From: an uncultured Lachnospiraceae bacterium
GTDB lineage: Bacteria; Bacillota; Clostridia; Lachnospirales; Lachnospiraceae
Direction: 5' to 3'
DNA: 38,486 bases
Assembly: GCA_947630925.1 (NCBI GenBank)
Contig: CANRJM010000021.1
Coordinates: forward strand, 1 to 38,486
The position numbers and the translations under genes are program-made. The notes under the pieces were generated by a model. The model ran no database searches. It was not told where the DNA came from and saw only the letters and a list, made by a program, of their open reading frames with translations. Positions 4,515 through 36,203 of this stretch are shown here, in pieces; positions within the stretch are counted from its first letter, which is position 1, and each line of letters starts with the position of its first letter.

Positions 4515-5132
<618 letters not shown>

Positions 5133-12866: not shown

Positions 12867-12934
12867 TTATTTTACTTCCTTCTGCGCCCATTTCGCCACA
12901 CTCTTATAGGATAAATCGGTCGGGTCTTTTCCCC
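12867..12934 (-). pseudogene. Flavodoxin gene 3'-end relic, copy A
   Basis: The minus strand encodes GKDPTDLSYKSVAKWAQKEV followed by K and a stop. This is the C-terminus of the secreted flavodoxin at 35610-36203 (GKDLTDLSYKSVAKWAKKQV). Over 68 bp it differs from copy B (13851-13918) at four positions by my count. Similarity stops abruptly at 12934 where CCCC meets TGCATG. Confidence 0.75.
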
Positions 12935-12947
12935 TGCATGTGTCAAG

Positions 12948-12984
12948 TATAGGACAAACTTTTTTTGAAAAAATTTATCCTATA
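12948..12984. repeat. AT-rich imperfect palindrome beside relic A
   Basis: TATAGGA (12948-12954) and TCCTATA (12978-12984) enclose an inner AAAC/T-run and A-run/TTT pairing, giving a long imperfect hairpin. It begins 13 bp past the end of relic A. It could be a mobile-element end or a terminator; I cannot identify it. Confidence 0.4.
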
Positions 12985-13062
12985 TTCTTGCTTACCCAAT
13001 CTGCTTTTATCATACAGGCTTACTCCAAGTTTGCATAGGTACAGACTATCTACCGTTGACTT

Positions 13063-13467
13063 CTATACTGCTACTACACAGGATTCATTATAAAAGGGAA
13101 TCTTAAAATCATGTGTAACAAACTTCATACCATCTGCTTTCGCCTGAGCGATCATAATCCGGTCAAAGGGATCATTATGCACCTGATGCTCGCTATGGAA
13201 TACCAGCGTTTCCAGTACCCCTACATGCTTATCTGTAATCGGTAGCATCTGATACCCCATTTTTCTGCACAGTTCCGACAATTTAGAACCACTGATCCGA
13301 ATCTTATCCGGCTTTGCCATATATTTGATTGTCGTCTCCCACACAGCGGCAGCACTATAATAAACATCATTATCTGCATCCATAATCAAAGCTTTCGCCT
13401 GTTCCGACAATTTGGGGTTATCATCTAATGCCCATAAAATAATATGCGTATCTAATAACAGCTTCAT
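13063..13467 (-). CDS. PIN-domain toxin (VapC-like ribonuclease)
   Basis: A 134-residue PIN-domain protein, likely the RNA-cleaving toxin of a type II toxin-antitoxin pair. MKLLLDTHIILWAL supplies the first catalytic Asp (residue 6), AAAVWETTIKY the central Glu, HNDPFDRIMIAQA the central acidic cluster and FVTHD the last Asp. The pattern matches the Sll0205-like PIN subgroup. It overlaps the antitoxin gene by 4 bp. A terminator lies downstream at 12811-12848. Confidence 0.92.
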   Translation of the reverse strand: MKLLLDTHIILWALDDNPKLSEQAKALIMDADNDVYYSAAAVWETTIKYMAKPDKIRISGSKLSELCRKMGYQMLPITDKHVGVLETLVFHSEHQVHNDPFDRIMIAQAKADGMKFVTHDFKIPFYNESCVVAV

Positions 13468-13697
13468 TCCAACACTCCAAACATTTTAGCAATTTCAGGG
13501 TTCATCTCATCAAAATCGTAATCGTCATCATATAAGTTCTGCCCTCTGGCAATCCCAATTCTCTCTGTGATTACTATATTCTTGTTTTCCTTAACCTCAG
13601 GCTGCATGAAACGATCTATTATCTCTAGCAAAAACTGCAGGTTATCTTCTGAAAGTCCACTGACTTTTTGGACAACCTGATCCTGCAATACTGACAT
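13464..13697 (-). CDS. Antitoxin partner of PIN toxin
   Basis: A 77-residue acidic protein directly upstream of the PIN toxin with a 4-bp overlap, the usual antitoxin-first layout. The N-terminal half (SVLQDQVVQKVSGLSEDNLQ) is helical; the C-terminal tail is acidic (LYDDDYDFDEMNPEIAKMFG) and would be the toxin-binding part. No standard DNA-binding motif is obvious. The ATG at 13697 is chosen because AAGGCGG lies 8 nt upstream; a GTG three codons earlier sits inside that spacing. Identification rests largely on context. Confidence 0.8.
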   Translation of the reverse strand: MSVLQDQVVQKVSGLSEDNLQFLLEIIDRFMQPEVKENKNIVITERIGIARGQNLYDDDYDFDEMNPEIAKMFGVLE

Positions 13698-13753
13698 ATA
13701 AAACACCGCCTTTTCTTCATAAAATTAACTTCTCTGACTGTCTGTCTAAGTAT

Positions 13754-13782
13754 ATTATACACAAATACAGCCGACTATACAA
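13754..13782 (-). promoter_or_regulatory. Promoter of toxin-antitoxin operon
   Basis: Minus-strand -35 TTGTAT (13777-13782) and -10 TATAAT (13754-13759) are separated by 17 bp, ending ~55 bp upstream of the antitoxin start. Confidence 0.6.
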
Positions 13783-13850
13783 TTGCAACTTCCTTTTTCA
13801 AACGTTTTAACAGTTTCTTTTTTCTACTGATTTTTCTCCATGCCCCGGAA

Positions 13851-13973
13851 TTATTTTACTTTCTTCTTCGCCCATTTCACCACGCTCTTATAGGATAAAT
13901 CGGTCGGGTCTTTTCCCCATACTTCTATATCAGAATGAATTTGTAACCCATACAGCGTGCGGTAAAAAATCAT
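13851..13973 (-). pseudogene. Flavodoxin gene 3'-end relic, copy B, in a 40-codon ORF
   Basis: The last 21 codons read GKDPTDLSYKSVVKWAKKKV then K and stop, matching the secreted flavodoxin C-terminus. They are joined in frame to an unrelated start, MIFYRTLYGLQIHSDIEVW, making a 40-residue frame. Its ATG (13973) has only a poorly spaced AAGGA. It lies 19 bp past the stop of the last cobalamin-operon gene, so it is probably on that mRNA. Most likely a relic, though translation of the small frame is not excluded. Confidence 0.6.
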
Positions 13974-13992
13974 ATCCTTCTACTTTCCTTTT

Positions 13993-14229
13993 TTAACTTT
14001 TCAAAATCCGCATCATTACATCATAATTCTCAGGCTGATGAGGAAAAGTACAGTTAGTACAATCTTTTATTTTCCTCCCATCCCTTTCTATATACTTAGG
14101 ATTTCCCGGACAATTTTCTCTCAAATACAATGGACAATAGCAAAATAAACAGTTAAAATCATCCAGCCCCTTATGACAGGGAAAATATTTGCACTCGCTA
14201 TTTTCAAAAAAACGATATGAATTTTCCAT
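13993..14229 (-). CDS. Cysteine-rich small domain protein, last gene of cobalamin operon
   Basis: A 78-residue soluble protein with nine or more cysteines. The sequence YRFFENSECKYFPCHK, FNCLFCYCPLY, then DCTNCTFPHQPENYD fits the Cys-rich small domain family, which recurs beside cobalamin genes but has no proven function. The cysteine pairs suggest binding of a metal ion or a small cluster. It starts 6 bp after the cbiA stop and is clearly the last cistron of the operon. A role in cobalt handling is an inference from context. Confidence 0.8.
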   Translation of the reverse strand: MENSYRFFENSECKYFPCHKGLDDFNCLFCYCPLYLRENCPGNPKYIERDGRKIKDCTNCTFPHQPENYDVMMRILKS

Positions 14230-14235
14230 TTTCTT

Positions 14236-15663
14236 TTACACCATCTTTTCCTTATATCTCTCTGCTTTCTCTACAAATACCTTTGCAAATATAGGGTTAG
14301 ATGGGTAATATAAATGCGGAAAACCCATCCAATGCGTTTCATCTTCTATAATGCAGGGATATTCTTTTCCTGTCATGGGTTTAATTGCTACCACATCACT
14401 TCCATTACAAGTACTGTCATAATAATGAAACTCATGCCCTTTTATCTTTTCACCTTTTGGAAGGAAACAACTTTGTCTTTCCTTCATCTCTATGTAACCG
14501 AAACGAACCAGCTTTCCAATATAAAAGCATGTCCCCGGGATGATTCCTGCCATGTCATATCTAACTCCGTTCTTGTCTGTTATAAAGGAATGTAAATACA
14601 TAAAACCACCACACTCTGCTACCACAGGCATCCCATTCTCCACGGCATCTTTAACTGTTGTACGCATTCTGGTATTTCCGCTAAGTTTCTCCGCATACAG
14701 TTCGGGATATCCACCGCCAATCAGCAGTGCATGACATCCATCCGGTAGCTTCTCATCCCATAACAGAGAAAAATATTTTATCACCGCACCATTTTCTTCC
14801 AACATACGAATATTATCTGCATAGTAAAAGCAAAAAGCTTCATCCCTTGCCACAGCAATTACAGGACGGTTCCCGGCACTCATCTTCTTTGTCTCTATTT
14901 TACCACTATCTGCCAGTTCTTCCGCACTCTCAGCTATTGTAACGATAGTCTCAATGGAAACGTTCTCTATAAACTTTTTGGAAGCTGCCTGCAGCTTTTC
15001 TTTTATGTCATCCAATTCATTCGGTGTAACAAGCCCTAAGTGTCTGCTCTCTATATGCAGCTCTTCCCTCTCCGGTAAAAAACCTACTACTTGAACCTTT
15101 AGTTCTTTTTCTATCAGAGGTTTGACTATTTCATAATACCCCTTTGAAATCCTGTTCAACACCACTCCCTGAATGAGATGTTCCTTATCATACGCAAGAA
15201 ATCCTGCAATCAATGATATGACAGAACGTCCCATTCCCTTTACATCGACGACAAGTACAATAGGCGTTTTCGTTACTTTCGCCAAATGATAGGACGAACC
15301 TTCTTCCCTGACTCCTCCCAACCCATCATATAGTCCCATAACACCTTCCAAGACTGCAATCTCTCCCTCTGTTACACCATCCATAAAAATTTTTTTCGTC
15401 TGCTCCTCATTTGTAAAAAAAGTATCCAAATTTTTAGCCGGAACATCTATTATCTTTTCATGGAACATCGGATCAATATAATCCGGTCCGCATTTATAGG
15501 AAATCACGTTACATCCATCACTCTTTAATGCCTGAAGCAAAGCACAGGTAACTACTGTTTTTCCGCTTCCACTCTTTGGGGCGGCAATCATAATCCTTTT
15601 GATTTTCATTGAAACAACCATACCTTTCTTTCCATATCCCTCTCCTGTCTCATGCAGCATCAT
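14236..15663 (-). CDS. cbiA: Cobyrinate a,c-diamide synthase CbiA
   Basis: Amidates the a and c side chains of cobyrinic acid using glutamine and ATP. The N-terminal domain is a dethiobiotin-synthetase-like P-loop fold (IAAPKSGSGKTVVTCAL near residue 30), with YKCGPDYIDPMFH and EGVMGLYDG as family motifs. The C-terminal class I glutamine amidotransferase domain has LLIGGGYPELYA and AECGGFMYL with the nucleophile Cys351. The start is unsure: the frame opens 6 bp after the upstream stop, but homologues begin near MKIKRIMIAAP, whose ATG is at 15609; neither has an ideal ribosome site. It follows the CbiJ-CbiE-CbiT fusion in the operon. Confidence 0.95.
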   Translation of the reverse strand: MMLHETGEGYGKKGMVVSMKIKRIMIAAPKSGSGKTVVTCALLQALKSDGCNVISYKCGPDYIDPMFHEKIIDVPAKNLDTFFTNEEQTKKIFMDGVTEGEIAVLEGVMGLYDGLGGVREEGSSYHLAKVTKTPIVLVVDVKGMGRSVISLIAGFLAYDKEHLIQGVVLNRISKGYYEIVKPLIEKELKVQVVGFLPEREELHIESRHLGLVTPNELDDIKEKLQAASKKFIENVSIETIVTIAESAEELADSGKIETKKMSAGNRPVIAVARDEAFCFYYADNIRMLEENGAVIKYFSLLWDEKLPDGCHALLIGGGYPELYAEKLSGNTRMRTTVKDAVENGMPVVAECGGFMYLHSFITDKNGVRYDMAGIIPGTCFYIGKLVRFGYIEMKERQSCFLPKGEKIKGHEFHYYDSTCNGSDVVAIKPMTGKEYPCIIEDETHWMGFPHLYYPSNPIFAKVFVEKAERYKEKMV

Positions 15664-15669
15664 ACCACT

Positions 15670-17721
15670 CTATCCGTCAAATTCAAATGCACAAATCCAA
15701 ACCGGATTTTCTGACTGCATCAAATGATGACTTCCTGCCTTCTTCGTTCTGCTTACCTGTATTTGAACGATTTCTTTCGTTTTTATATAATCCACTGATA
15801 AGATTTCTTTTATTTCACAAATGGTTTCCATACTGACAGCATTGATGACAATCCGCATTTTGGAATTAATCTGCCTAAGCACCTTCAGAATTTCCTTTAA
15901 TCTTCCATTGCTCCCTCCTATAAACGCATGTGTTGCTACCGGAAGATTTAATAAACCTTCCGGTGCCACCGCTTCTACTACTGTTATATTTTGCAGTCCA
16001 AACTTTTCCTTATTTTTTTTAATCAGAGAAACTGCCTCTTTTTTCTGTTCCACCGCATATATCTGTATATCATCGGAAAGAGCTGCCATTTCCACCGCAA
16101 CCGAACCTGTCCCGCTGCCAATATCATAGACTATCCCACCTTCCTGTAGTCGAAGTTTACAAATGCTGACTTCCCGCACTTCCTCTTTTGTCATGGGCAC
16201 TCTATCCCTAATAAATTCTCCATCTGCAATGCCATGTGTCAGCCTTCTTTTCATAGCATATGGATTTCTAATAAAGCAGGTATACAAACCTTCCTTTTCC
16301 AACTCAAGGCATTCTGACGGTGTATACTTTTTTATCCATTGTTCCTTATAGGATAACTGATATCCTATTATAATTTCGCATTCCTCCATACCAGCATCTG
16401 TTAATAGCTTTCCCAAACAATTTATATCTTTAACACCGGAAGTAAGTAAAAAGGTCTTTGAACTATTTTTAACCCTGCGTGCAAGGTTACATAATTTTTT
16501 TCCATGTATGCTGTAAATAGCAGCATCCTGATAACTCTCTCCAATACAGGCGGCCAAATAAGACACAGAAGAAATGCCCGGCATAATGTGCAAAGATGCC
16601 TTTAACCGCCTCTCTCTAACCTCTTTTTGTAATGCTGCATATAAAGACTGGCATCCACTGTAAAACCCACTGTCCCCTGAAAAGAGAATTACCACCTTTT
16701 TATTTTCTAAAAAAGTATTATTTTCCTGCACTTCTCTCAAATACGGAATAATCTGCTCTGCCAAATAAAAAAAATGCTTTTCCGATTTAGAACGCAGATT
16801 TTTCAGTATCCTTTCTGCTCCTAGCAAAATATCTGCCTCACTAATTACCGTTTCTACTTCTTTCGTCAGACAATCTTCATATCCCATACCGACGCCAGCC
16901 AGGATAATTTCCATCTGACCTTTTATCAGAATCCTTTTTCCACAAATATCTTCCAACTTGCAGCACAGCTCAGCAAAGGAATAGCCTTTGTCTTCTTTCG
17001 GACATCCTATTACAAACAACTGCGTTCCTGTTCTTTTTGCAGCCTCCAATTTTTCCGGATATCCACCCGATACACCGCTCTCCTTTGTTACTAAACAGGA
17101 AATATCATATTGCTGGATTATTGCCTCATTCATTTCCATAGCAAAAGGTCCCTGCATGGCAATAACCTGTTTTCCACAAATCCCCTGTTCCATACAAAGA
17201 GAAAGACTTTCTGCGCTTGGAAGTACCCTTACATATAATCTGCTCTTTATCTCTTCACAAGTACAATACTTAGCCAATTCCTTGCTGCCTGTAGTTAGAA
17301 GAATATTCCCCTTTGTATCTTCCAAAGCCCTTGCACATGCTTCATTTGTCTCAAAATAAGTAATATTGCCTTCACATTGTGTATGCCTGTCTCTTTTCAG
17401 ACGCAAATAAGGAATTGATATTCCTGACTTCTTTCTTTCCTCTAGCGCTTTTTTTATATTGCGGGTAATATGTTCGGCATAGGGATGGGTGGCATCCACC
17501 ACTGCTGCAAATTGTCCGCCAATCAGGAAACCCTCTATTTCTTCCTGATCCATTCTGCCCTGATGCACTTTTACAAGGGGATGCTGTTCCAAAACAATTT
17601 CACCATACACCGTTGCCACGCAGATCGTATGGCTTATTCCTGCTTCCACAAGATATTCTGACAGCTTTCTCCCTTCTGTTGTTCCTGCAAAAATCAGTAT
17701 TTCCTGTAATGTTTCGCTCAT
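15670..17721 (-). CDS. cbiJET: Triple fusion CbiJ-CbiE-CbiT (precorrin-6A reductase, C5- and C15-methyltransferase/decarboxylase)
   Basis: One 683-residue polypeptide carries three successive corrin-ring activities. Residues ~1-265 are the precorrin-6A reductase (ILIFAGTTEGRKLSEYL, VVDATHPYAEHITRN, VTKESGVSGGYPEKL). Residues ~270-475 are the C5-methyltransferase CbiE (IILAGVGMGYEDCLT, SGDSGFYSG, MPGISSVSYLA). Residues ~490-683 are the C15-methyltransferase/decarboxylase CbiT (IRDRVPMTKEEVRE, SAM loop VYDIGSGTGSVAVEMA, FIGGSNGRLKEIL). CbiE-CbiT fusions (CobL type) are well known; adding the reductase at the front is less usual. There is no stop or frameshift between the parts. The start overlaps the cbiH stop by 4 bp, giving translational coupling. 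Confidence 0.93.
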   Translation of the reverse strand: MSETLQEILIFAGTTEGRKLSEYLVEAGISHTICVATVYGEIVLEQHPLVKVHQGRMDQEEIEGFLIGGQFAAVVDATHPYAEHITRNIKKALEERKKSGISIPYLRLKRDRHTQCEGNITYFETNEACARALEDTKGNILLTTGSKELAKYCTCEEIKSRLYVRVLPSAESLSLCMEQGICGKQVIAMQGPFAMEMNEAIIQQYDISCLVTKESGVSGGYPEKLEAAKRTGTQLFVIGCPKEDKGYSFAELCCKLEDICGKRILIKGQMEIILAGVGMGYEDCLTKEVETVISEADILLGAERILKNLRSKSEKHFFYLAEQIIPYLREVQENNTFLENKKVVILFSGDSGFYSGCQSLYAALQKEVRERRLKASLHIMPGISSVSYLAACIGESYQDAAIYSIHGKKLCNLARRVKNSSKTFLLTSGVKDINCLGKLLTDAGMEECEIIIGYQLSYKEQWIKKYTPSECLELEKEGLYTCFIRNPYAMKRRLTHGIADGEFIRDRVPMTKEEVREVSICKLRLQEGGIVYDIGSGTGSVAVEMAALSDDIQIYAVEQKKEAVSLIKKNKEKFGLQNITVVEAVAPEGLLNLPVATHAFIGGSNGRLKEILKVLRQINSKMRIVINAVSMETICEIKEILSVDYIKTKEIVQIQVSRTKKAGSHHLMQSENPVWICAFEFDG

Positions 17722-18446
17722 TGATACCCCCTTTTCGTGATTAGTTTCCCATTTATTATTTCTGAACCGGAGCTTCCAATAAATACCGTAGTGAACATAT
17801 TAACTTCCCTCTCTCTCAGTTCTTTTAATTTGCATGTCTCCACTTTTGTTCCTTTTCTTCCTATATTTTCAACATATCCGCATACCCGTTCCCCCTCTAT
17901 ACTGCGAAGTAAAATATCACAGGCTCTCATCAAATAATCTTTTCGTTTACGGCTGGACGGATTATAAAGCACAATGACAAAATCACCCTCTGCGGCTGCA
18001 TTTAACCTTTTTTCAATCCTTTCCCACGGTGTCAGCAAATCACTCAGACTGATGACACAGAAATCATGATTCAGAGGCGCTCCTAAGACTGCTGCCCCAC
18101 TGCTCGCTGCAGTAATCCCTGCTATGACAAAAAGCTCTATTTCCGGATACTCTTTTCCAAGCTCATACATCAAAGATGCCATTCCATAAATTCCTGCATC
18201 ACCGCTACATACAAGGGCTACTCTTTTCCCTTTTTCGGCTTCCTGAAAACATAACCGGCATCGTTCCTTCTCCTGACGCATAGGTGTAGATAACAGTTCT
18301 TTTTCCTTAAAGCGTACACTTAACAAATCCAAATACAAAGTGTAGCCGACAATCACATCTGACTGCTCCAATATATGTATTGCTTCCGCTGTCATCATTT
18401 CTTCTCTGCCCGGTCCCATACCCACAATATAAATACTATTTTTCAT
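17718..18446 (-). CDS. cbiH: Precorrin-3B C17-methyltransferase CbiH (CobJ family)
   Basis: Methylates C17 and drives ring contraction of cobalt-precorrin-3. About 242 residues with the tetrapyrrole methylase fold: MKNSIYIVGMGPGREEMMT with the N-terminal GxGPG loop, CSGDAGIYGMASLMYE, AGITAASSGAAVLGAPLNHD, and VLYNPSSRKRKDY. The length excludes the longer fused CbiH60 form. The ATG at 18446 sits inside the end of cbiG, overlapping by 11 bp; no site is needed beyond re-initiation. It overlaps the next gene by 4 bp. Confidence 0.94.
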   Translation of the reverse strand: MKNSIYIVGMGPGREEMMTAEAIHILEQSDVIVGYTLYLDLLSVRFKEKELLSTPMRQEKERCRLCFQEAEKGKRVALVCSGDAGIYGMASLMYELGKEYPEIELFVIAGITAASSGAAVLGAPLNHDFCVISLSDLLTPWERIEKRLNAAAEGDFVIVLYNPSSRKRKDYLMRACDILLRSIEGERVCGYVENIGRKGTKVETCKLKELREREVNMFTTVFIGSSGSEIINGKLITKRGYQ

Positions 18447-19515
18447 AAGTAACCCACTTTCTGCACTGGCTATTTTTTGCGATTGCAATCGTTATTCCAT
18501 TTTCAGCATACTTTGGAACAATCAGTTTTCCGCCCTTACCACAGGCTTTCAGTGCCGCCCTTTCACATACATTGTCCACGCCCACTTGATCCTTTACAAA
18601 GTCTGACTTAGTAAAATTCCCCTTTACCTTCTGCAATTCCTCAGCCGTATAGGTAAAAAACAAAACATCTTCTTTCCTGCACCATTCAAGTATACCCTGT
18701 TCATCACATTTCTGTGAAATAGAAGAAAGTGCCATAATCTGTGTAATGGAAATACCCAGTTCATTGATTTTTTTCATGATAACCTCGCCTATCTCATCCG
18801 CACTCTTCCCCTTTTTACATCCTATTCCTATGATATATTCCTGTGGTTTTAACAAAATAGCAGTATCAAATTTACAATCTCCAGATGTAACCACAACATC
18901 GACTGTCTCTGCTGGTGGATAAGGCAACAGCCGCACTTCTGCAGGCAGGCAACTTTTCTCATCAATCCCATGCCCCGGTTCTATGGACATGGTTATTTTC
19001 TCTCCCGCCAATGCTTTTGAGGAAACCTTCGCAATTCCATCCTTGTTCACAATATAAAGTCCGTTTCTTTTTGCAAACATATCTACCGCAAATCTTTTAT
19101 TGATGTCTGTTGCTGTAGTAATAACAGGCACTGCACCTGTTTTATCTGCAATATAATTTGCAAGCTCGTTTCCCCCGCCAATATGTCCGGATAAAATCGG
19201 GATAATATATTTACCTTTTTCATCCATCACAAGCACTGGGGCATCTTGCAGTTTATCGGTAAGGTTGGAAGCGATTGCTCTGACCGCAATCCCACAAGCT
19301 CCGATAAACAGCATCGCAATCCTTTTCTGCATCTGTGTTTTTGCCCAATCTCCAACAGATGTTTCCACAGATAAGACAGGCGAATCGCTGCCATCACTCA
19401 TACAGGCTTTGCATTTTGTAAATAAATTAATTTCTATTTCCCTTTCAAGCATTTTTGCAATGTTTTCCGAAAGCAGCTTTCCATTTTCCGTAAAGCTTAT
19501 CACGTTTAATTTCAT
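18436..19515 (-). CDS. cbiG: Cobalt-precorrin-5A hydrolase CbiG
   Basis: Opens the delta-lactone of cobalt-precorrin-5A and releases acetaldehyde, a hallmark step of the anaerobic pathway. The ~359-residue protein has the N-terminal motif IGACGIAVRAIAS, the central LSGHIGGGNELAN, and a C-terminal CbiG domain (YIIGIGCKKGKSADEI, then VGVDNVCERAAL). The ATG at 19515 has AAAGGG 8 nt upstream; another ATG two codons earlier is too near that site. It starts 13 bp after the cbiF stop and its end overlaps cbiH. Confidence 0.94.
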   Translation of the reverse strand: MKLNVISFTENGKLLSENIAKMLEREIEINLFTKCKACMSDGSDSPVLSVETSVGDWAKTQMQKRIAMLFIGACGIAVRAIASNLTDKLQDAPVLVMDEKGKYIIPILSGHIGGGNELANYIADKTGAVPVITTATDINKRFAVDMFAKRNGLYIVNKDGIAKVSSKALAGEKITMSIEPGHGIDEKSCLPAEVRLLPYPPAETVDVVVTSGDCKFDTAILLKPQEYIIGIGCKKGKSADEIGEVIMKKINELGISITQIMALSSISQKCDEQGILEWCRKEDVLFFTYTAEELQKVKGNFTKSDFVKDQVGVDNVCERAALKACGKGGKLIVPKYAENGITIAIAKNSQCRKWVTYEK

Positions 19516-19528
19516 GTTCATATCCCTT

Positions 19529-20290
19529 TCACACTTCGCTTTTCTTCCGAAATCCGGTTGAAAAATCAGACGCATACAACCTTGATTTTCTATAATTCTG
19601 ATGAGTAATCACATCACCGACTAGCACCAGGGCTGTTTTGGTAATACCATGTTTAACAGATGTATCATACAATGTTTCAATCGTACAGATATATGCCTCC
19701 TCATCATCCCATGTTGCTTTATACACAAGTGCCGCTGGTGTCGTTTTCTCATATCCTCCTTCTATAAGTCGTCTGCTTAATTCCTTAATCATTCCTGTGC
19801 TTAAATAGATTGCCATAGACGCCTGATGCGCTGCAAAACTCTCAATACTTTCCCGCTCCGGCACTTTTGTTTTTCCCTCCATTCTGGTAATAATCAGGGA
19901 TTGAGAAACGCCCGGCAGGGTATATTCCAAATTCAAAGATGCAGCTGCCCCAAAACAGGCAGTTACACCTGGACAGCTCTCATAAGAAATGTTTCGTTTA
20001 TCCAGCTCATCCATCTGCTCCCTGACTGCACCATATATGCTTGGCTCTCCTGTATGCAGCCGGACCGTTGTTTTTTCTTCCGTTTCCGCTCTGCAAATAA
20101 TCGCAAGCACTTCTTCCAGCGTCAACTTAGCACTATTATGTATCTCACATTCCTTTTTTGCATACATAAGCAATTCCGGATTTACTAAAGAACCGGCATA
20201 TATAATGACATCTGCCTGTTCTAACAAACGCATTCCCCTGACTGTTATCAAATCTACTGCTCCTGTTCCTGCCCCAACAAAGTAAACCAT
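19529..20290 (-). CDS. cbiF: Cobalt-precorrin-4 C11-methyltransferase CbiF
   Basis: A 253-residue tetrapyrrole methylase that adds a methyl group at C11. It begins MVYFVGAGTGAVDLITVRG, with the GAGxG SAM loop, and carries IIYAGSLVNPELL, LHTGEPSIYGAVREQMDEL, PGVTACFGAAASLNLEYTLP and QSLIITRMEGKTKVPE, all typical of CbiF/CobM. Its first ~37 bp overlap the 3' end of cbiD in another frame, a long overlap that implies coupled translation. Confidence 0.95.
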   Translation of the reverse strand: MVYFVGAGTGAVDLITVRGMRLLEQADVIIYAGSLVNPELLMYAKKECEIHNSAKLTLEEVLAIICRAETEEKTTVRLHTGEPSIYGAVREQMDELDKRNISYESCPGVTACFGAAASLNLEYTLPGVSQSLIITRMEGKTKVPERESIESFAAHQASMAIYLSTGMIKELSRRLIEGGYEKTTPAALVYKATWDDEEAYICTIETLYDTSVKHGITKTALVLVGDVITHQNYRKSRLYASDFSTGFRKKSEV

Positions 20291-21384: not shown

Positions 21385-21385
21385 T

Positions 21386-23064: not shown

Positions 23065-23100
23065 ACCAATAAATCATTCCCCTTTTCATCTGCAATTTTG

Positions 23101-25063: not shown

Positions 25064-25064
25064 G

Positions 25065-25835: not shown

Positions 25836-25894
25836 ATCTTTGTATTCCTCACTACTTTAGTCTCTACACCTGTAAACATATATTTTTGCGGTTA

Positions 25895-28960: not shown

Positions 28961-28967
28961 AACTGCC

Positions 28968-29762
28968 TCATTTCTTCGTTGCTTTTATCCCCCTGATGTA
29001 CGCAAGGAATTTTTCATTTCCCCCAAAGCTACTCTCAGTAATATCAAAAAGCTGCTCTATAAAATTCGATGCAAAAATCTCTTCCGGTGTGCCATATCTT
29101 TCCACATACTCCCCTTTCAGACAGAGGATTTTATCGGAAACTATCTTTGCCAGTTCTAATTCATGTAAGGACATAATAACAGTCAGTCCCTTCTTTTCCC
29201 TCATCTCCTGCAATATGGACAAAAATTCAAGCTTATACTTTATATCCAGATATGAAGTTGGCTCGTCTAATATCACGATTTCCGGTTCTTGACAAATTGC
29301 TCTTGCAAGCATCACTCGCTGCTTTTGTCCATCACTAATTTTATCAAAATCCTTTTCACGAATATCTGTTATATGAGTGAGTTCCATCACCTCATCAACA
29401 ATCAACTCATCCTCTTTTGATAATATTCCAAACCAACCGGTATAAGGGTATCGCCCTGTTGCAACTACATCTCTGCAGTTTTTCAGTTCTGCCCTTAGCT
29501 TTTCTGTAAACAACACTGACATTTTCTTTGCCAGTTCATCCGCCTTCATTTCTGATAAAACAGTTTCACCAAGATATACCGTTCCATCAATCAGCCGTAA
29601 TTGTCCTGCAATACTTTTTAACACCGTTGATTTTCCTGCACCATTTGGACCAATTATGCTTAATATCTCCCCTTTGGGCAGAGCAAGCTCCATCTCTTTT
29701 ATCAATGGCTTATTATCATACCCTACACACATCTTTTTTGTTATAAAATAGTAATTCTCCAT
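28968..29762 (-). CDS. btuD: Corrinoid ABC transporter ATPase (BtuD-like)
   Basis: The ATP-hydrolysing subunit of a FecCD/BtuCD-type importer, on the inner face of the membrane. The 264-residue protein has Walker [14 protein letters not shown], a slightly changed signature motif [16 protein letters not shown] (SDGQ in place of SGGQ), Walker [13 protein letters not shown] and the switch histidine in MSLHELELA. It is the third gene of the transporter set. Corrinoid specificity, rather than ferric siderophore or heme, is inferred from the riboswitch and the surrounding pathway genes. Confidence 0.88.
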
Positions 29763-29786
29763 TTCTCCATCTCATTTTGCATCATT

Positions 29787-30806
29787 TTATTTTTGCTTTT
29801 TTATCATAATCCAGAGTACCACAGGCGCTCCAAAAATAGCAGTCACCGTACTGATACTCAACTCTGTTGGTGCAAGTATCGTTTTGGCAAGCAAATCACA
29901 AAACAGACAAAAAACACTTCCACCCAAAAAACAGGCAGGTATCATCAATATCGGTTCTGTTGTGCGTAGAAACCTTTTCACCAGATGCGGTACTGCAATT
30001 CCCACAAAGGAAATCGGTCCTGCAAATGCCACAATACATGCTGACAAAATGCTGGAAAAAATCACAATGCGAACCCGAAGAAACCGTAGATTTACCCCCA
30101 CATTCCTCGCATAAGCATCTCCCAACTGGTAAGCACTAAGCGGCTTTGACATGAGAAAGACAGCAATAAATGTCATAGAAATTACTACTGCCATAACCTT
30201 TACATTCTCCCATGTCATCCCGGAAAAACTCCCTCTGGACCAATTATGAAGATTTACAATGTCCGCATCATTAGCAAAAGTCACAACCAATTCTGTAATT
30301 GCAGAACAGATGTAACCAATCATAACACCGCTGACTACCAGCATTGACATATTGTTAATCCTGCGCGACATCAGCAAAACAAATCCCATTGATATCATAG
30401 CACCGATAAATGCCCCCAAAATCATAGCAGCCGATGTTACCCTGATACCGTTTCCCATTAAAAATACCATCACAAGTGCCACAACCATCTTTGCACCGGA
30501 AGATATTCCCAAAACAAACGGACCTGCAATGGGATTGTTGAAAAATGTCTGCAAAAGATATCCGGCAAGTGCAAGCGCTCCACCAAGTATCAAAACTGCC
30601 GTTGCCCTCGGAAGCCTGATATCCCATAAAATCCTTGTTACAGTTTCGTTTATTTCCTGTCCTGCAAGTGCTCTTACGATATCCGGAAATACAATCCTGA
30701 CACTCCCAATACAAACATTCAAAAAATAAAAAAACAAAACACCAATACCAAGTAAAAGGAACGCTGTAATATATCTGCATTTCTTGTTTTTATGCATATG
30801 TATCAC
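29787..30806 (-). CDS. btuC: Corrinoid ABC transporter permease (BtuC-like, FecCD family)
   Basis: A 339-residue permease with about ten hydrophobic helices. Family motifs are DIRLPRATAVLILGGALALA near residue 60, QTFFNNPIAGPFVLGISSGA, and the late FAGPISFVGIAVPHLVKRFL that contacts the ATPase. Start is GTG at 30806 or ATG three codons on; AAAGG lies 4 nt before the GTG. It sits 17 bp after the binding-protein gene and 24 bp before the ATPase gene. Confidence 0.9.
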   Translation of the reverse strand: MIHMHKNKKCRYITAFLLLGIGVLFFYFLNVCIGSVRIVFPDIVRALAGQEINETVTRILWDIRLPRATAVLILGGALALAGYLLQTFFNNPIAGPFVLGISSGAKMVVALVMVFLMGNGIRVTSAAMILGAFIGAMISMGFVLLMSRRINNMSMLVVSGVMIGYICSAITELVVTFANDADIVNLHNWSRGSFSGMTWENVKVMAVVISMTFIAVFLMSKPLSAYQLGDAYARNVGVNLRFLRVRIVIFSSILSACIVAFAGPISFVGIAVPHLVKRFLRTTEPILMIPACFLGGSVFCLFCDLLAKTILAPTELSISTVTAIFGAPVVLWIMIKKQK

Positions 30807-30822
30807 GATACCTTTCTCTTAA

Positions 30823-32007
30823 CTATTCCAAATGATAAAGATAGTGCATATCGTCCATTTCTCCATGAAACATTGCATACATATCTTCAATTAAATAACC
30901 AATCAAGAGCGACTGCTGGTACATATCATTTGTAGTACACCAGACATTCCCCTCTTTTACCGCCTTAAAATCCGCTAAAAGTTCACATTTATCAAGAAGA
31001 TCTTCCACACTGGAAACACCACCATCGATTGAACTGTTATAAATTAAATAATCCGCATCTTTTGCGCCCGCATAAAACTCTTCTGCCTGTATATTCATGG
31101 TGGAACGCTTTGTTTCTGCAGCGCCTAAGTTTTCAAAAACATAGTTTCCCCCCGCAAGCTCTATCATCTTTGGAACATAGTCAGATGACTGGCGTACTTG
31201 TACCATTCCATTAGAGGTAATAAAGAAAAAGGCTGCTGTTTTATCTGTTTTTTCATCTGTACTTACCTTTTCAAGCACTGCTGCCTGTTCTTCAAATATC
31301 CTCTCTGCCTCGTCCTCCTTCCCAAGCAAGGCTCCATAAAACTTAACCCATTCCACCCTGCCAAGCGGATGTGACTCATAACTGGAATAATCTATCATAA
31401 TCGGAATTCCAAAATCTTGCAACTTTTCTATCACTTCGGGAGAATGCGAAATCATCATGTTCTCTATAGCAAGCGTACAATGATTTGAAACAATCAGCTC
31501 ATAATCCGGTTTACTATACTTGCCCGCATAAAGAATATCGCCCTTTGCCATTGCCTCCCTGGCAGCTTCGATATACCAGCCATCTTCCTTCTGTCCTGAA
31601 AAAGTAATTGTATCCAATCCATTCAACTCACTGAAAATACCCATTGCCGAAGATGCCACCAGATAAATATCTTTCACCGGACGTTTAAGTATCACTATTT
31701 CTTTATCTAAATCCTGTGGCACTTCTTTATTTTCCGGTACAATCAAAAACCGCACTTCGTCCATTATTGTCGTCAACAGAACATAGCCGCCCTTATAATA
31801 GTCTATGGTAAAATTCTCGGCATACTGTAGCTCCATGCTTTTTTCATAAACCAGAGATGGTACGTTTTCTGTCTTTTGTGTTGATTGAAGATTTGCTTTT
31901 GTTTCCAGCCCTGTATCAGATACGGGACTGGAAGTATGACTACTACAGCCAGACAGCCATAGCAGCCCCACAAAAAGCAGAATAAATATCTTTTTTCTGT
32001 GTCTCAT
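30823..32007 (-). CDS. btuF: Corrinoid-binding lipoprotein (BtuF-like, periplasmic-binding fold)
   Basis: A 394-residue substrate-binding protein anchored outside the cell. The signal KKIFILLFVGLLWLSGC ends in a lipobox with Cys21. The mature part matches the BtuF/FecB-type fold: LKRPVKDIYLVASSAMGIFS, YELIVSNHCTLAIENMMI, FGIPIMIDYSSYESHPLGRV and the C-terminal lobe with KEGNVWCTTNDMYQQS. GGAGG lies 6 nt before the ATG. It is followed by the permease and ATPase genes. Corrinoid specificity is inferred from the operon and riboswitch; the sequence alone does not separate it from siderophore binders. Confidence 0.87.
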   Translation of the reverse strand: MRHRKKIFILLFVGLLWLSGCSSHTSSPVSDTGLETKANLQSTQKTENVPSLVYEKSMELQYAENFTIDYYKGGYVLLTTIMDEVRFLIVPENKEVPQDLDKEIVILKRPVKDIYLVASSAMGIFSELNGLDTITFSGQKEDGWYIEAAREAMAKGDILYAGKYSKPDYELIVSNHCTLAIENMMISHSPEVIEKLQDFGIPIMIDYSSYESHPLGRVEWVKFYGALLGKEDEAERIFEEQAAVLEKVSTDEKTDKTAAFFFITSNGMVQVRQSSDYVPKMIELAGGNYVFENLGAAETKRSTMNIQAEEFYAGAKDADYLIYNSSIDGGVSSVEDLLDKCELLADFKAVKEGNVWCTTNDMYQQSLLIGYLIEDMYAMFHGEMDDMHYLYHLE

Positions 32008-32051
32008 CCATAACCTCCAATGCCTCTACCACCACAAGTTGACGGCTGCAT

Positions 32052-32924
32052 TTATTCTTTTATTTTATCTGAATGAAAGGTCAGCGTGTACTCCACTTCA
32101 TGCGGTTTACTCATCGCCACAGTATCACCAATAACAACCACTGGTTCATCAAATCTAAGGACAGGAATCTCAAATACAGAGTTCCCTTCTGTATTTACCG
32201 GAAGATATTTTTCTCCATCCACTAACATATAATCATAATTAGGGCTGCTCCACTCTACGGTTGCTACTGCTTTTCCATCTTTTACGTTCACCGTTACAGG
32301 CGATAATATCTTCGCTCTTCCGCTTCCGCCCTCAAAAGTGATTTCCATGCTGTAAGTACCGTTTTTCAAAGTATCTACAGATTTTTCCTGTGTATCATTC
32401 TCTAATGGTACCGGATTGGAAACACTGACTTTGTGGTCATACCATTTTCCTTTTGTCCCAACCAGTGCCAAATCAAATTCTGTCTCTAATGCAGGCACTG
32501 GTACATCAAAACCGTAAACTTCCTCTGTTGTACCATCACTGTATGTAACGGTATCCTCTGTTGGAGAAAGCAGCTCTGCCCCCTCCTTTGCCGCATCGTC
32601 TGCAAGTCCTGGGTAAAGATTTAGTATTTTTTTAGAGATTAATGTAATATGAATTGACATTTCTCCATTTTTTACTGTAAGTGTACCTTTTCCCTCACAC
32701 GTTTCATTTACACGAAACATACTGTTGTCTGTTGTAAACTCTGCCGTATATGTTCCATCCTCCAGTTTCGCAGTTTCATCACTTTCAGAACCTGACGGTG
32801 TCTCTGTAGTTTCTACTGAAGTACCTGTAGTTTTCTCTGGATTCTGTACACTGTTGCTCCCTCCACAGCCTCCAAGCAGTGAAACAACGAGAAGCGCCGT
32901 AATAACTATCAACTTTTTCTTCAC
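32052..32924 (-). CDS. Uncharacterised two-domain lipoprotein in the B12 regulon
   Basis: A ~290-residue secreted lipoprotein. The signal segment ends in LLGGCGGS with a lipobox Cys, then a Ser/Thr/Glu-rich linker to about residue 58. Two related beta-rich domains follow. Shared elements are DGTYTAEF and NGTYSMEI at each start, GTLTVKNGEMSIHI and VTVNVKDGKAVATV in the middle, and FDVPVPALETEFDLAL and FEIPVLRFDEPVVVIG near the end. The layout resembles small ligand-binding beta-sandwich (NEAT-like) domains, but I cannot assign a family. The real start is probably the GTG at 32924, which has GGAGG 8 nt upstream. Lying between cbiK and btuF, it may capture corrinoid, cobalt or tetrapyrrole at the surface. 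Confidence 0.75.
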   Translation of the reverse strand: MKKKLIVITALLVVSLLGGCGGSNSVQNPEKTTGTSVETTETPSGSESDETAKLEDGTYTAEFTTDNSMFRVNETCEGKGTLTVKNGEMSIHITLISKKILNLYPGLADDAAKEGAELLSPTEDTVTYSDGTTEEVYGFDVPVPALETEFDLALVGTKGKWYDHKVSVSNPVPLENDTQEKSVDTLKNGTYSMEITFEGGSGRAKILSPVTVNVKDGKAVATVEWSSPNYDYMLVDGEKYLPVNTEGNSVFEIPVLRFDEPVVVIGDTVAMSKPHEVEYTLTFHSDKIKE

Positions 32925-32959
32925 TATAATTACCTCCATCTAACTGCAACCTGCTCCTA

Positions 32960-34162
32960 TTATTTTTTCAGCGCATCCGCTGTATGTTCTACATAAATTT
33001 TCTGAACGGCATCAATAGAGCCAAGACCGGCAATCTGTACATCCACGCTGTCAAAATGACCGGAAGCCTTAAACATACTAAGCCATGAATCCTCGTCATC
33101 ACCTGCCATATCATTATTAGCATGATCCCCTGCTACAACCATTAACGGACGGAGAATTACCTTTTTACAACCTGACTTTGCCACTGCATCTATCACTGCC
33201 TCACATGATGTTTCCTCTGGTTCTCCTTCTACCGTACCGATAAACACATTATCATATCCAAGCTTTCCCATCTGTGACTGCATCTGGCTATACGATACCT
33301 TTGCCGCATGAGACGTGCCATGCCCTAAAAATACAAATGCAGCACCATCCTCTTTTGCATTATCCAAACTGTCATATCTCGCATCCTTCACTGCTGTTTC
33401 CGTAAGCGCCTTTGCAACAGCTTCCTTGTCAGCGTTAATTACCGTTGCATCTGCACCGACCTCACCAAGAAGCGGTTCTGCAACCTTTACCGTTTCAAAC
33501 TTATCCCGATATGTATCAACTGCTTCCATCAATTCATCATACTCTGCACCATGCATAAGATGCGTAGGCTGTACCACTAAATTCTTTACTCCACTTGCTA
33601 CTGCACGTTCCAGTGCCTGAGCCATGTTGTCAATAGATTCTCCATCACGAGCCTGGATATGGTTGATAATAATCTGTGCCGTAAAAGCCCTTCTTACGGA
33701 CCAGTCAGGATTTGCTTCCTGAATTGCATCCTCAATTCCCTTAATATCATCAACACGACTGTCATTAAAGGAAGTGCCAAAGCTGACTACCAAAATCTCA
33801 TTCTCACCAATATTATCCTGATTTCGTGGATCATCCTTAGATACATCACCGGTATCCCTGCCAAAATAATCCGGATCGGCATTTTCACCTTCCACAAGTT
33901 CTTTCTGGGCATCCGTCAGGGAATCCCATGCAGACTTTGCCTTCTCACATTGCTCATCCGTTTTGTCATTTCTCTCCTGCACATAGATTGCATCAATTAA
34001 TGCGGCAACTTCATCGGCTGCTGCCTTATCTGAAGATTCTGTCTTATCTTCTGTCTGTACAGAATCTCCAGCAGTTTCCGATGTATCATTAGAGCATCCT
34101 GTCAGTGCCAACGAACAAGTCGTGACGCTGGCTAATAACGCAATAACTAATTTTTTTCTCAT
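32960..34162 (-). CDS. cbiK: Sirohydrochlorin cobaltochelatase CbiK, lipoprotein form
   Basis: Belongs to the family inserting cobalt into sirohydrochlorin. Residues ~122-395 are the CbiK domain: ILVVSFGTSFNDSR at its start, FLGHGTSHAAKVSY with His281, GTVEGEPEETSCE with the metal-ligand glutamate, and MVVAGDHANNDMAGDDEDSW with His347. These match the His-Glu-His set of the Salmonella enzyme. In front is a lipoprotein signal (LVIALLASVTTCSLALTGC), an acidic linker, and a ~45-residue helical segment with WDSLTDAQKELV, common in clostridial surface proteins. It should therefore lie outside the membrane. AAGGAG precedes the ATG. It is the first gene after the B12 riboswitch and terminator. Confidence 0.92.
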   Translation of the reverse strand: MRKKLVIALLASVTTCSLALTGCSNDTSETAGDSVQTEDKTESSDKAAADEVAALIDAIYVQERNDKTDEQCEKAKSAWDSLTDAQKELVEGENADPDYFGRDTGDVSKDDPRNQDNIGENEILVVSFGTSFNDSRVDDIKGIEDAIQEANPDWSVRRAFTAQIIINHIQARDGESIDNMAQALERAVASGVKNLVVQPTHLMHGAEYDELMEAVDTYRDKFETVKVAEPLLGEVGADATVINADKEAVAKALTETAVKDARYDSLDNAKEDGAAFVFLGHGTSHAAKVSYSQMQSQMGKLGYDNVFIGTVEGEPEETSCEAVIDAVAKSGCKKVILRPLMVVAGDHANNDMAGDDEDSWLSMFKASGHFDSVDVQIAGLGSIDAVQKIYVEHTADALKK

Positions 34163-34253
34163 GTTTCTGTCTCCTTTTCTTACTTGTTAAATTTACAAAA
34201 AAGCGTAAACACAGTGGCCACACTACGATTACAGCAATTTCATACAAAGTAAA

Positions 34254-34302
34254 AAATCCTTTCTTATAACTGAAACTTTGTTGCAGTTATAAGAAAGGAT
34301 TT
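34254..34302 (-). terminator. Riboswitch-linked terminator hairpin
   Basis: A perfect 19-bp stem: AAATCCTTTCTTATAACTG (minus strand 34302-34284) pairs with its exact complement at 34272-34254 around an 11-nt loop, and is followed by a run of T. It lies between the riboswitch and the cbiK start and would end the leader transcript when B12 is bound. About 115 nt separate it from the end of the aptamer. Confidence 0.85.
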
Positions 34303-34418
34303 GTACACAAATAAGCCTGCAGAATACATTCACGCAAATAAACGTTCATAATGTTTCTGCAAGTTCAAACGTACAACCAGTTACTCGTGGTCTGAAACAA
34401 ATGTTTCTGTACAACATC

Positions 34419-34600
34419 CAGGCAGGTCTCCCGGCTTAAAGATCATCACATCCGCCATCTTCCCAGGAAAGAATTTCCTTGTTTCCCAGTGATATATCGG
34501 CTTCAACTCCCTAATTACGGTGACGAGTTCGTACAGGATTTGCACCTGTTTCCCTTTTCACCAAAACCAATGCTTATTTCTACACATTGTTTTGACACCT
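34419..34600 (-). ncRNA. Cobalamin (B12) riboswitch aptamer
   Basis: Minus-strand RNA with the conserved cobalamin-aptamer elements in order: GGTGCAAATCC (34546-34536), a junction with CACTGGGAAA around 34490-34482, GATGGCGGATGTGATGATC near 34460-34440, and the B12 box AAGCCGGGAGACCTGCC (34437-34421). The outer ends are approximate. It lies between a good promoter and a strong terminator upstream of cbiK, so it should switch the whole synthesis and uptake operon off when cobalamin is plentiful. Confidence 0.95.
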
Positions 34601-34625
34601 GTATGTTATTATTCAATTATTCAAT

Positions 34626-34654
34626 AATATATCATATTTCTTACTTAATGTCTA
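34626..34654 (-). promoter_or_regulatory. Promoter of the cobalamin operon
   Basis: Minus-strand -35 TAGACA (34649-34654) and -10 TATATT (34626-34631) with a 17-bp spacer. Transcription would start near 34619, about 20 nt before the riboswitch. The -35 box overlaps the stop codon of the upstream gene, showing that the operon starts here. Confidence 0.7.
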
Positions 34655-35359
34655 TAACCGTTGATCACTGAATTTCCCAAAAATCTGTCTATATCCATAT
34701 GTCAACGGCATATCTGTCATTCTCACTAGTGGATTTTTGGGCGAACAGTCATCTGCTATTCTATTGGAACAACTGATATTATTACATCCAACACAAATGC
34801 CTTTGCATTGCAAGCTTACATCCTGTGTCAGCTCTGAAATAAATGCAACACTCTTTTTAGGTAGCATACAAAAAGCCGAATTACAGGTAATCTGTGGTGC
34901 AACCCTTTTTAACAGAGATGGCAGTAGCTCTATGGGAAAGTCTTCTTCACTGCCAAGAAAATGATATCTTGCAACATGCCAGTCTGTATTTTCTCTGATA
35001 TAGCGATTATAAGCCTCATAACCTTGCAGTAAAAACTCACTTGCCAATACCTCAAGCATATAGCTCTGTGATAACATTCCCCTGTCACTATAGCTTTCCT
35101 GTAAACGATCCAGCTCTTTACCTAGAGACATAACAACATTTTCATATATCGTAGTGCCATTCTCCACCTGATGATGATTTTTTACAAAGGATTCCTCCCT
35201 CTCCCAAAATGCTTCCTCACGCATCAATGGCAGCATCTCCTCTGCCACTTTTTGAAATTCATCCTCCTGAGTGTCTCCATAATGAAATTTTTGGCGCACC
35301 CTCTCTAAAAAAACTGGCGATAAAAAGTCATCTAATACATCAGAAAAAAACGCTTTCAT
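34652..35359 (-). CDS. Protein resembling B12-dependent methionine synthase activation domain, with Cys cluster
   Basis: A 235-residue soluble protein. The middle region (GKELDRLQESYSDRGMLSQS, then ARYHFLGSEEDFPIELLPSL, then CNSAFCMLPKKSVAFISEL) follows the pattern of stand-alone clostridial versions of the methionine synthase reactivation domain, which helps reduce oxidised cobalamin. Next comes a cysteine cluster, CKGICVGCNNISC (CX3CX2CX4C), with another Cys seven residues on, which could hold an iron-sulfur cluster. AAGGAG lies ~9 nt before the ATG. It is upstream of the B12 riboswitch promoter, so it is not under that switch. The assignment rests on motif resemblance; a TorD-like helical chaperone was considered less likely. 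Confidence 0.5.
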   Translation of the reverse strand: MKAFFSDVLDDFLSPVFLERVRQKFHYGDTQEDEFQKVAEEMLPLMREEAFWEREESFVKNHHQVENGTTIYENVVMSLGKELDRLQESYSDRGMLSQSYMLEVLASEFLLQGYEAYNRYIRENTDWHVARYHFLGSEEDFPIELLPSLLKRVAPQITCNSAFCMLPKKSVAFISELTQDVSLQCKGICVGCNNISCSNRIADDCSPKNPLVRMTDMPLTYGYRQIFGKFSDQRL

Positions 35360-35609
35360 TTGACTTTCTCCTTATAATTCACAACATTTATATTTCATAA
35401 AACGCTTTATTACTATCCATCAATACAATTTAATAATATAGACTAAATATATAGCTTCATTTTTGGACGATTGAAACAATATTCCAATTTCACTTTTTCT
35501 CCGGCTTACATCTTCTATAATTTCATATGTTTGTGTTTCCCACAACGTAAAATCATACTTTGACTTTCCCCATTTTACCACAATCCGGAAGCGTGTAAAT
35601 AGCCTGTTT

Positions 35610-36203
35610 TTATTTGCCTTTTACCTGCTTCTTCGCCCATTTTGCCACACTCTTATAGGATAAATCGGTCAGGTCTTTTCCCTTTTTTACCTTTGCGCCC
35701 TTGGCGCTTGCTTTTACCCCTTTCATGCTGCCGGAGATACCGCTCCCGCCGCTGGTGCAGAATGGCACGATCTTTTTTCCTTTCAGATTATAGGACTCCA
35801 GAAACGTGCGGATAATCTTCGGCTCCTTTCCCCACCAGATGGGATAACCAAGAAATATCACGTCATATTTACGGATATTTTTTACTTTTCCCTTGATTTT
35901 TGGCCTGGCATTTTCATCATTCTGCTCTTTATTCGCCCGGCAGTCATCATTTTCATATCCCAGATCAGCCGTTGTATATGGCTTGGTTGGTTTGAGCCGG
36001 TACAGCTTCCCTCCGGTTGCCTTCTTTAATTTCTTAGCAGCGCCCTTTGTCGTCCCTGTTGCCGAGAAATAAACAACCAGCACTTTTTTTGCTTCCTTTT
36101 TCTTCTTACCTGCTGCGCCCGCATTTGCCGCCGGAAGCATCAAGCCTGCAATCAACGCAAACACCAGCGCCAGATTGATCCAAACTATACTTTTTTTCTT
36201 CAT
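35610..36203 (-). CDS. Secreted flavodoxin
   Basis: An exported FMN-binding flavodoxin-like protein of ~197 residues. A signal peptide (KKKSIVWINLALVFALIAGL, ending ANAGAAG) is followed by a Lys-rich stretch and the flavodoxin domain: VLVVYFSATGTTKGAAKKL is the phosphate-binding loop, DVIFLGYPIWWGKEPKIIRT and IVPFCTSGGSGISGSM the flavin-contacting loops. The start is the ATG at 36203 with GGAGGG 8 nt upstream. It lies downstream of the flavodoxin-reductase fusion on the same strand, separated by a hairpin. Its last ~55 bp recur as relics at 12867-12934 and 13851-13918. Likely extracellular electron carrier or reductase; partner unknown. Confidence 0.9.
   Translation of the reverse strand: MKKKSIVWINLALVFALIAGLMLPAANAGAAGKKKKEAKKVLVVYFSATGTTKGAAKKLKKATGGKLYRLKPTKPYTTADLGYENDDCRANKEQNDENARPKIKGKVKNIRKYDVIFLGYPIWWGKEPKIIRTFLESYNLKGKKIVPFCTSGGSGISGSMKGVKASAKGAKVKKGKDLTDLSYKSVAKWAKKQVKGK

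What the first reader, a model, noticed from the sequence alone, without database searches (positions are those of the whole stretch)
12867..35682. Flavodoxin 3'-end direct repeats bracket the cobalamin operon and the toxin-antitoxin pair
The 3' end of the secreted flavodoxin gene (copy C, 35628-35682) recurs in the same orientation at 13863-13917 (copy B) and 12879-12933 (copy A). By my count C differs from B at 4 and from A at 3 of 55 positions. B and C enclose the whole cobalamin operon (~21.7 kb); A and B enclose the VapBC-like pair (~1 kb). Similarity breaks at about the same point (CCC or CCCC) in all three. This is the pattern left by integration into the 3' end of a gene, or by stacked elements sharing one attachment site: intact gene, cargo, displaced 3' end, second cargo, second displaced 3' end. 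No integrase lies between them, so it could be a mobilisable remnant. Decay of ancient flavodoxin paralogues is the main alternative.
Basis: partly seen in the sequence, partly recalled or inferred. Interest (0 to 1): 0.7.

Follow-up and report, generated by a model that had tools for sequence, protein, structure and literature searches.

The report
Flavodoxin gene-end insertion hotspot
In gut Lachnospiraceae the last third of a flavodoxin gene is a recurring landing site for mobile DNA carrying anti-phage and toxin-antitoxin genes; in this genome the displaced gene ends are still visible, and a vitamin B12 operon sits between two of them.

Summary
The three repeats are real: 3, 3 and 4 mismatches in 55 nt, next best match of C in the window 25; a fourth copy lies on another contig. 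They are displaced 3' ends of a Flavodoxin_4 gene. In 21 of 87 sequences searched, flavodoxin 3' ends lack their 5' half; 17 of 24 such hits start at or near the codons Gly-Tyr-Pro-Ile-Trp-Trp. Fourteen junctions share an end sequence...GTCCYATACTTGACA..., also beside copy A. Four of them lie on loci with large serine recombinase genes, none in this genome. Cargo includes CBASS, ThsA, Gabija and the window's VapBC. Some relatives show the site without insert. A-B is therefore well explained as a decayed integrated element. The B12 operon (B-C) fits a second, stacked insertion, since relative L118 has flavodoxin followed directly by the antitoxin ORF. But B lacks the end sequence, and three relatives carry the operon without bracketing ends in the DNA read, so its cargo status is unproven. 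New flavodoxin-targeting member of known integrative/cis-mobilizable elements; no excision or recombinase activity is shown.

The parts
35610..36221 (-). Intact secreted flavodoxin gene (Flavodoxin_4), the target gene; codons GYPIWW begin at 35849
   Evidence: PF12682 E 2.1e-50; position by sequence
35616..35683 (-). Copy C: 3' end now attached to the gene; among the loci held its tail recurs only at the displaced copy in G159
36261..38330 (-). Big_2/flavodoxin/aldo-keto reductase fusion upstream of the flavodoxin; conserved neighbour that identifies the same locus in G159 and L118
34652..35359 (-). 235-aa ORF without Pfam or NCBIfam match; no tblastn match in the loci held, including G235, G318 and G002
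34404..34617 (-). Cobalamin riboswitch of the operon
   Evidence: Rfam RF00174, 103.6 bits
13989..34657 (-). Cobalamin biosynthesis/transport operon (block homologous to relatives), possible cargo between C and B
   Evidence: gene order conserved in G235, G318, G002; block limits
13919..13988 (.). Junction between operon and B; no match to the loci held and no recognised element-end sequence
13851..13918 (-). Copy B: displaced 3' end whose downstream flank is the VapBC-like cassette
   Evidence: 89.6% over 443 nt with L118, where it ends an intact flavodoxin
13063..13706 (-). VapBC-like pair (PIN-domain ORF 13063-13467; antitoxin-like ORF 13464-13706)
   Evidence: PF01850 for the first ORF; 87% and 79% aa identity to the pair in G239
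12935..12967 (-). Conserved element-end sequence beside copy A (AAAAAAAGTTTGTCCTATACTTGACACATGCA)
12867..12934 (-). Copy A: displaced native 3' end
12811..12848 (-). Hairpin-like inverted repeat (seen by eye) downstream of A; this tail is shared with the 3' ends of intact flavodoxin genes of relatives
   Evidence: sequence; sharing

Best explanation
The flavodoxin gene end is a site-specific insertion hotspot. Mobile elements with a conserved end sequence recombine at the Gly-Tyr-Pro-Ile-Trp codons of Flavodoxin_4 genes. They carry their own version of the last ~79 codons, so the gene can stay intact while the old 3' end is displaced to the far side (anatomy shown; recombination inferred). Some relatives of the element carry large serine recombinase genes, in G318 a triplet, near that junction (shown); that these enzymes do the cutting is inferred. 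In the window a VapBC element inserted first, leaving A and B. Later, DNA including the B12 operon came between the gene and B, giving C (inferred). Both are now remnants without a recombinase of their own, like cis-mobilizable elements accreted at one site. Confidence: A-B about 0.85, serine recombinase mechanism about 0.7, B12 operon as cargo of the same kind of event about 0.5.
For: The class I end sequence stands at 14 junctions in 13 genomes, plus a decayed one (L081); in 12 of the 14 the flavodoxin begins at the GYPIWW codons, the exceptions being window A and L116. A strict motif gave 10 hits in 1.20 Mb (85 sequences, nearly all chosen for holding flavodoxins); all 10 lie at flavodoxin 3' ends (with 48, 49, 50, 58); five Markov controls gave 0, 0, 2, 0, 1. 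A junction pattern, designed from known cases, matched 6 places in 5 of 299 family genomes and 0 for the reversed pattern; five of the six were known before, G314 is new and is again a flavodoxin end. Serine recombinase genes or parts at 4 of these 15 junctions: L134 (stop 208 nt before the displaced end), G318 (three in tandem), L111 and G208; G271's triplet of the same kind has full domains but sits on a 5-kb contig without the junction. L132 keeps a 29-residue match to the first recombinase just before its junction. Sites without insert: L118 against the window, L101 against L121 and L111, L128 against L120. G159: intact gene, CBASS, element end, displaced 3' end. Chimera L114: 5' half 83% identical to a paralogue whose 3' half is 50%, while its own 3' half is 96% identical to L128.
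Against: No serine recombinase was found beside 11 of the 15 junctions with queries from G318 or by eye, apart from the L132 fragment; several lie near contig ends. G314's junction has a tyrosine recombinase fragment nearby instead (PF00589). In no single locus were an intact gene, a recombinase and the displaced end all seen. B lacks the end sequence. The operon occurs in G235, G318 and G002 without bracketing 3' ends in the DNA read. Across 667 gene pairs third-position identity does not rise at the break (0.494 before, 0.496 after), so 3' halves are not exchanged often. A and B share a trimmed left edge that relatives' copies do not have; unexplained. No viral contig with the flavodoxin end was found. 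Most loci are metagenome bins.
Confidence: 0.75

Rival explanations
1. Ancient flavodoxin paralogues decayed in place, leaving 3' stumps; the cargo between them was always there.
For: Flavodoxin_4 paralogues are common (up to 8 matches in one genome of the genus). The copies are short and trimmed. Third-position identity shows no general jump at the break. 7 of 24 orphan hits start further inside the gene.
Against: Stumps from many genomes begin at the same codons behind the same non-coding sequence. L118 lacks the operon at the same locus. A flavodoxin 3' end is followed by the same antitoxin ORF in three genomes, with the PIN gene in two.
Confidence: 0.12
2. The A-B element is a true integrated element, but the B12 operon reached its place by ordinary rearrangement or homologous recombination between flavodoxin ends, not as cargo of an integrating element.
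For: B has no element-end sequence. The operon's gene order occurs in G235, G318 and G002 without bracketing ends in the DNA read. In G002 it lies beside a divergent flavodoxin.
Against: Among the loci held, C's 3' tail recurs only at the displaced copy in G159. The operon is bracketed by two 3' ends and is absent between gene and antitoxin ORF in L118. CobQ had no match at E<=1e-150 in G159, G239, G309 or G320.
Confidence: 0.45
3. Tyrosine-recombinase elements use the gene end, as is usual for integration into gene 3' ends.
For: Elements with tyrosine integrases often integrate in gene 3' ends without disrupting the gene (PMC5704250, passages). G314's junction contig holds a tyrosine recombinase fragment (PF00589, E 2.2e-10) 1 to 1.7 kb from the junction, on the opposite strand.
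Against: No tyrosine integrase was noticed at the other junctions, although not all cargo ORFs were scanned; serine recombinase genes or parts lie at 4 junctions.
Confidence: 0.2

Closest known systems
Streptococcal ICEs with a single serine integrase or a triplet of serine integrases (PMC4701971, passages read)
   Same: Triplet of serine integrase genes in one orientation at the element end, sometimes with ORFs between them and the target gene (G318); a defined site inside a coding gene
   Different: The serine-integrase targets in those passages are rumA, mutT, traG and hsdM; triplet elements disrupt the gene with 2-8 bp repeats, rumA elements (2-21 bp repeats) change its C-terminus; 'flavodoxin' does not occur in the main text. 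Here about 237 nt of the gene end is duplicated and the gene can stay intact.
CIMEs and tandem accretion of decayed ICE/IME at one target gene (PMC5704250, passages read)
   Same: Stacked remnants without integration genes, bounded by copies of the target gene's end
   Different: 'flavodoxin' does not occur in that main text; the cargo here (VapBC-like pair, B12 operon, CBASS, Gabija) was not compared item by item with it; transfer genes were not looked for here.
LSRs catalogued in PMC10083194 (passages read)
   Same: Many LSRs share one conserved coding target
   Different: 'flavodoxin' does not occur in the main text; supplements were not readable here, so it may be listed there. That paper reports no enrichment of LSR targets near anti-phage genes.
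Phage e14 at the icd 3' end (recalled, no call)
   Same: Element brings its own version of the target gene's 3' end
   Different: Tyrosine integrase and a phage, both from memory.

Membership tests
Integrative element inserted in a gene 3' end (CIME-like remnant) | Direct repeats of the target gene's end at both sides, one completing the gene | tested here: met
   window; G159
Integrative element inserted in a gene 3' end (CIME-like remnant) | Homologous site without insert in a relative | tested here: met
   L118 for the operon interval; L101/L121, L101/L111 and L128/L120 for relatives. No relative without the A-B insert at this very locus was identified.
Integrative element inserted in a gene 3' end (CIME-like remnant) | Conserved element end (attachment) sequence | tested here: met
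   At A; not recognised at B
Integrative element inserted in a gene 3' end (CIME-like remnant) | No integration genes left | tested here: met
   None found between A and C. Own genome has 4 PF07508 matches, none on the window contig.
Large-serine-recombinase element | LSR gene (Resolvase + Recombinase domains) in the element | tested here: inconclusive
   Not in the window. Genes or parts at 4 of 15 related junctions; domains verified at a junction only in G318, elsewhere by similarity to it
Large-serine-recombinase element | Recombination with a 2-bp crossover | not testable with these tools
   Needs circular-junction reads or an assay
ICE/IME | Relaxase/conjugation genes or oriT | not tested
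   No dedicated search; none noticed between A and C
Prophage or satellite phage | Phage genes or viral contigs carrying the gene end | tested here: inconclusive
   No relative of the flavodoxin end in viral contigs; phage protein families were not searched
VapBC | PIN toxin with adjacent antitoxin | tested here: inconclusive
   PIN domain met (PF01850); the antitoxin ORF has no Pfam match and no NCBIfam match near a cut-off

The most novel reading that the evidence does not exclude
A family of serine-recombinase-linked elements uses the GYPIWW codons of flavodoxin genes as attB and has turned the target gene's own last third into one arm of its attachment site. Each insertion therefore repairs the gene, and integrase-less cassettes (defence systems, toxin-antitoxin pairs, even a complete 20-kb B12 operon) can stack at the same gene and be mobilised in trans.
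Probability: 0.35. Interest if true: 0.75.

Novelty: new member of a known kind. Interest (0 to 1): 0.52.

Why it matters
It names a defined hotspot, with end sequence and break point, where gut Lachnospiraceae gain and lose defence and toxin-antitoxin systems. If the B12 operon proves to be cargo, B12 synthesis in gut bacteria could be acquired in one step at a known address. The end sequence gives a search key for finding further defence cargo.

Tried and rejected
Viral contigs were scanned for a pattern of the repeat (0 matches) and for the flavodoxin C-terminal peptide (9 pattern hits, none confirmed). The first junction pattern had wrong spacing: 11 places in 10 of 397 genomes, against 19 for its reversed control by my count; only G318:C14 (0 mismatches) was a true junction. 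It was replaced. Synonymous-site test for frequent 3'-half exchange: negative. Correlation of neighbouring windows (29 genes) is lowest exactly at GYPIWW (0.436 against 0.479-0.673 at the other boundaries), weak support only. Base composition of the operon genes (GC 0.407, GC3 0.359) against flanks (0.424/0.432 left, 0.482/0.523 right) is suggestive, not decisive. L102 against L099/L100/L110 (shared ATPase gene) was not used as an empty site because 0.8 kb of other DNA separates the displaced end from the ATPase in L102. The small resolvase 4515-5132 (PF00239 only) has no shown link. Papers: in the listings of searches (titles and abstract starts; several lists were capped, e.g. 15 of 245 and 12 of 98) I saw no report of flavodoxin as an integration site. 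PMC3485107 (passages) lists a flavodoxin ORF next to a TnpX-family recombinase ORF in its annotation table; not followed up.
Full report
Observation. The window is a whole contig (G000:C21). The three copies are as described: 3, 3 and 4 mismatches in 55 nt, a 68-nt family, next best match of C in the window 25 mismatches. C ends a Flavodoxin_4 gene. A fourth copy, D, lies at G000:C26:26104-26165. D and its downstream hairpin match A (81% over 123 nt), and upstream of D is a stretch 93% identical over 44 nt to DNA shortly before the displaced copy of G159.

What the copies are. A profile of the flavodoxin C-terminal part was run on 87 sequences (window, L011, L043, L044, L045, L048, L082 and the 80 loci; several of the first group are the same contigs as loci of the second). 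21 of the 87 hold 24 C-terminal hits without a 5' half beside them; 17 of the 24 start at profile positions 1-8, that is at or near Gly-Tyr-Pro-Ile-Trp-Trp. L082 and L097 are one contig, the L096 hit may be cut by the contig start, and A, B and D are too short for the profile. A common non-coding sequence stands directly before many of them: class I, TTTTTTTGTCCYATACTTGACAGATGCA|GG or ...AGTCYATACTTGACAGAAG|AATATCC (window A, L092/G159, L097/G239, L132, L133, L143, L107/G001, L111, L134, L116, G318 twice, G208, G314; decayed in L081/G309); class II...CAACGCATAACAGAGACTGGCTCCATTT|TATTATCC (L121 twice, L123, more diverged in L120). Orphans with neither end also exist (L097 first copy, L102, L136, L100, L104); L096, L122, L167 and L168 were not inspected for it. 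A strict class I motif occurs 10 times in 1.20 Mb, each time at a flavodoxin 3' end (three of those sequences were fetched because of a recombinase or the motif). A junction pattern is found at 6 places in 5 of 299 family genomes, none for the reversed control; five of the six were already known.

Integration. In G159, at the same locus as the window (aldo-keto reductase fusion and flavodoxin, flavodoxin 92.5% aa), the order is intact gene, CBASS genes, class I end, displaced 3' end. In G239 the same PIN/antitoxin pair as in the window lies between two flavodoxin 3' ends. In L118 the intact flavodoxin (N half 96% identical to the window's) is followed directly by the same antitoxin ORF, without the PIN gene and without any operon between. 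Sites with and without insert: L101 against L121 (89% over 342 nt) and L111 (83% over 545 nt), and L128 against L120 (83% over 308 nt), all starting at or just after GYPIWW. L114 is a chimera with its join at the same codons. Against frequent exchange, third-position identity shows no general jump there.

Recombinase. L134 ends a recombinase-like ORF 208 nt before its displaced end. In G318 three serine recombinase genes in tandem precede the class I end, with Resolvase and Recombinase domains in all three; the third is split in two ORFs in a sequence with ambiguous bases. L111 keeps pieces of the second and third, G208 the end of the third, and L132 a 29-residue match to the first. G271 has a triplet of the same kind with full domains on a 5.1-kb contig without the junction. 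A query from L111 and L134 matched 3 of 397 family genomes at E<=1e-30. No intact flavodoxin was found on the far side in the G318 stretches read. G314's junction has a tyrosine recombinase fragment nearby. The window genome has four PF07508 genes, none on this contig. So the link between this enzyme and this site rests on position.

Cargo. PADLOC hits: CBASS cyclase, E1-E2, JAB and 2TM effector (G159), ThsA (G208), GajA/GajB and PDC-S02 (L121), TmtA (L120), type I restriction (L118, other end unseen). These ten proteins from five loci were picked because they looked like defence genes, so no enrichment is claimed. Other junction loci carry other genes: VWA/lipase in L133, ORFs without Pfam match in L143, and an MrfA-like zinc-binding fragment in L107.

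The B12 operon. The same gene order occurs in G235, G318 and G002. In G235 and G318 no flavodoxin was found in the stretches read, which in G318 end about 0.5 kb beyond one end of the operon. In G002 a flavodoxin of 38% identity lies 1.5 kb upstream of cbiK, with no 3' end at the other side. Homology to relatives stops at about 13989 and 34657; the 235-aa ORF 34652-35359 has no match in the loci held. The tail of C resembles the displaced copy of G159, while A has the tail found on intact genes of several relatives. The simplest order is: native end A, then a vapBC element giving B, then operon DNA giving C. That order is inferred.

Unexplained. A and B share the left edge GGGGAAAAGACCCGACCG, whereas the vapBC-adjacent ends of G239 and L118 are longer. 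A second crossover point or a deletion between GG runs are both possible.

Known kinds. Serine-integrase triplets inside target genes (PMC4701971, passages) and accretion of decayed elements as CIMEs (PMC5704250, passages) cover the principle. Flavodoxin as target was not seen in the search listings named under Tried and rejected.

Noticed in passing
window 12905-12984: TATAGGA occurs twice in direct and once in inverted orientation within 80 bp around the right edge of copy A, partly inside the element end.
   Followed up: no
window 36261-36377 and 38370-38486: The contig ends in a 95% repeat of its own aldo-keto reductase 3' end; G159 has further AKR copies there, so the assembly probably broke at a gene array.
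   Followed up: partly
L134 790-5059 against L104 13024-17751: Two blocks appear in swapped order in two related bins at 96-98% identity, as after a circular intermediate or a rearrangement.
   Followed up: no
L143 around 4420: A second element-end-like sequence about 150 bp after the displaced flavodoxin end, with no flavodoxin codons directly behind it.
   Followed up: no
G000:C26:25711-26165: Copy D is followed by the start of an ATPase gene; a DUF4143/AAA_14 ATPase gene of that kind follows flavodoxins in L099, L100 and L110.
   Followed up: partly
L097 and L188: L097 (same contig as G239:C31, placed in the window's family) is titled a Bacteroidales bin, so title or bin may be wrong; L188 holds an IS200-type transposase (PF01797) inside the element.
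   Followed up: no
window 4515-5132: Small serine resolvase (PF00239 only) left of the repeats; no link to the elements shown.
   Followed up: no
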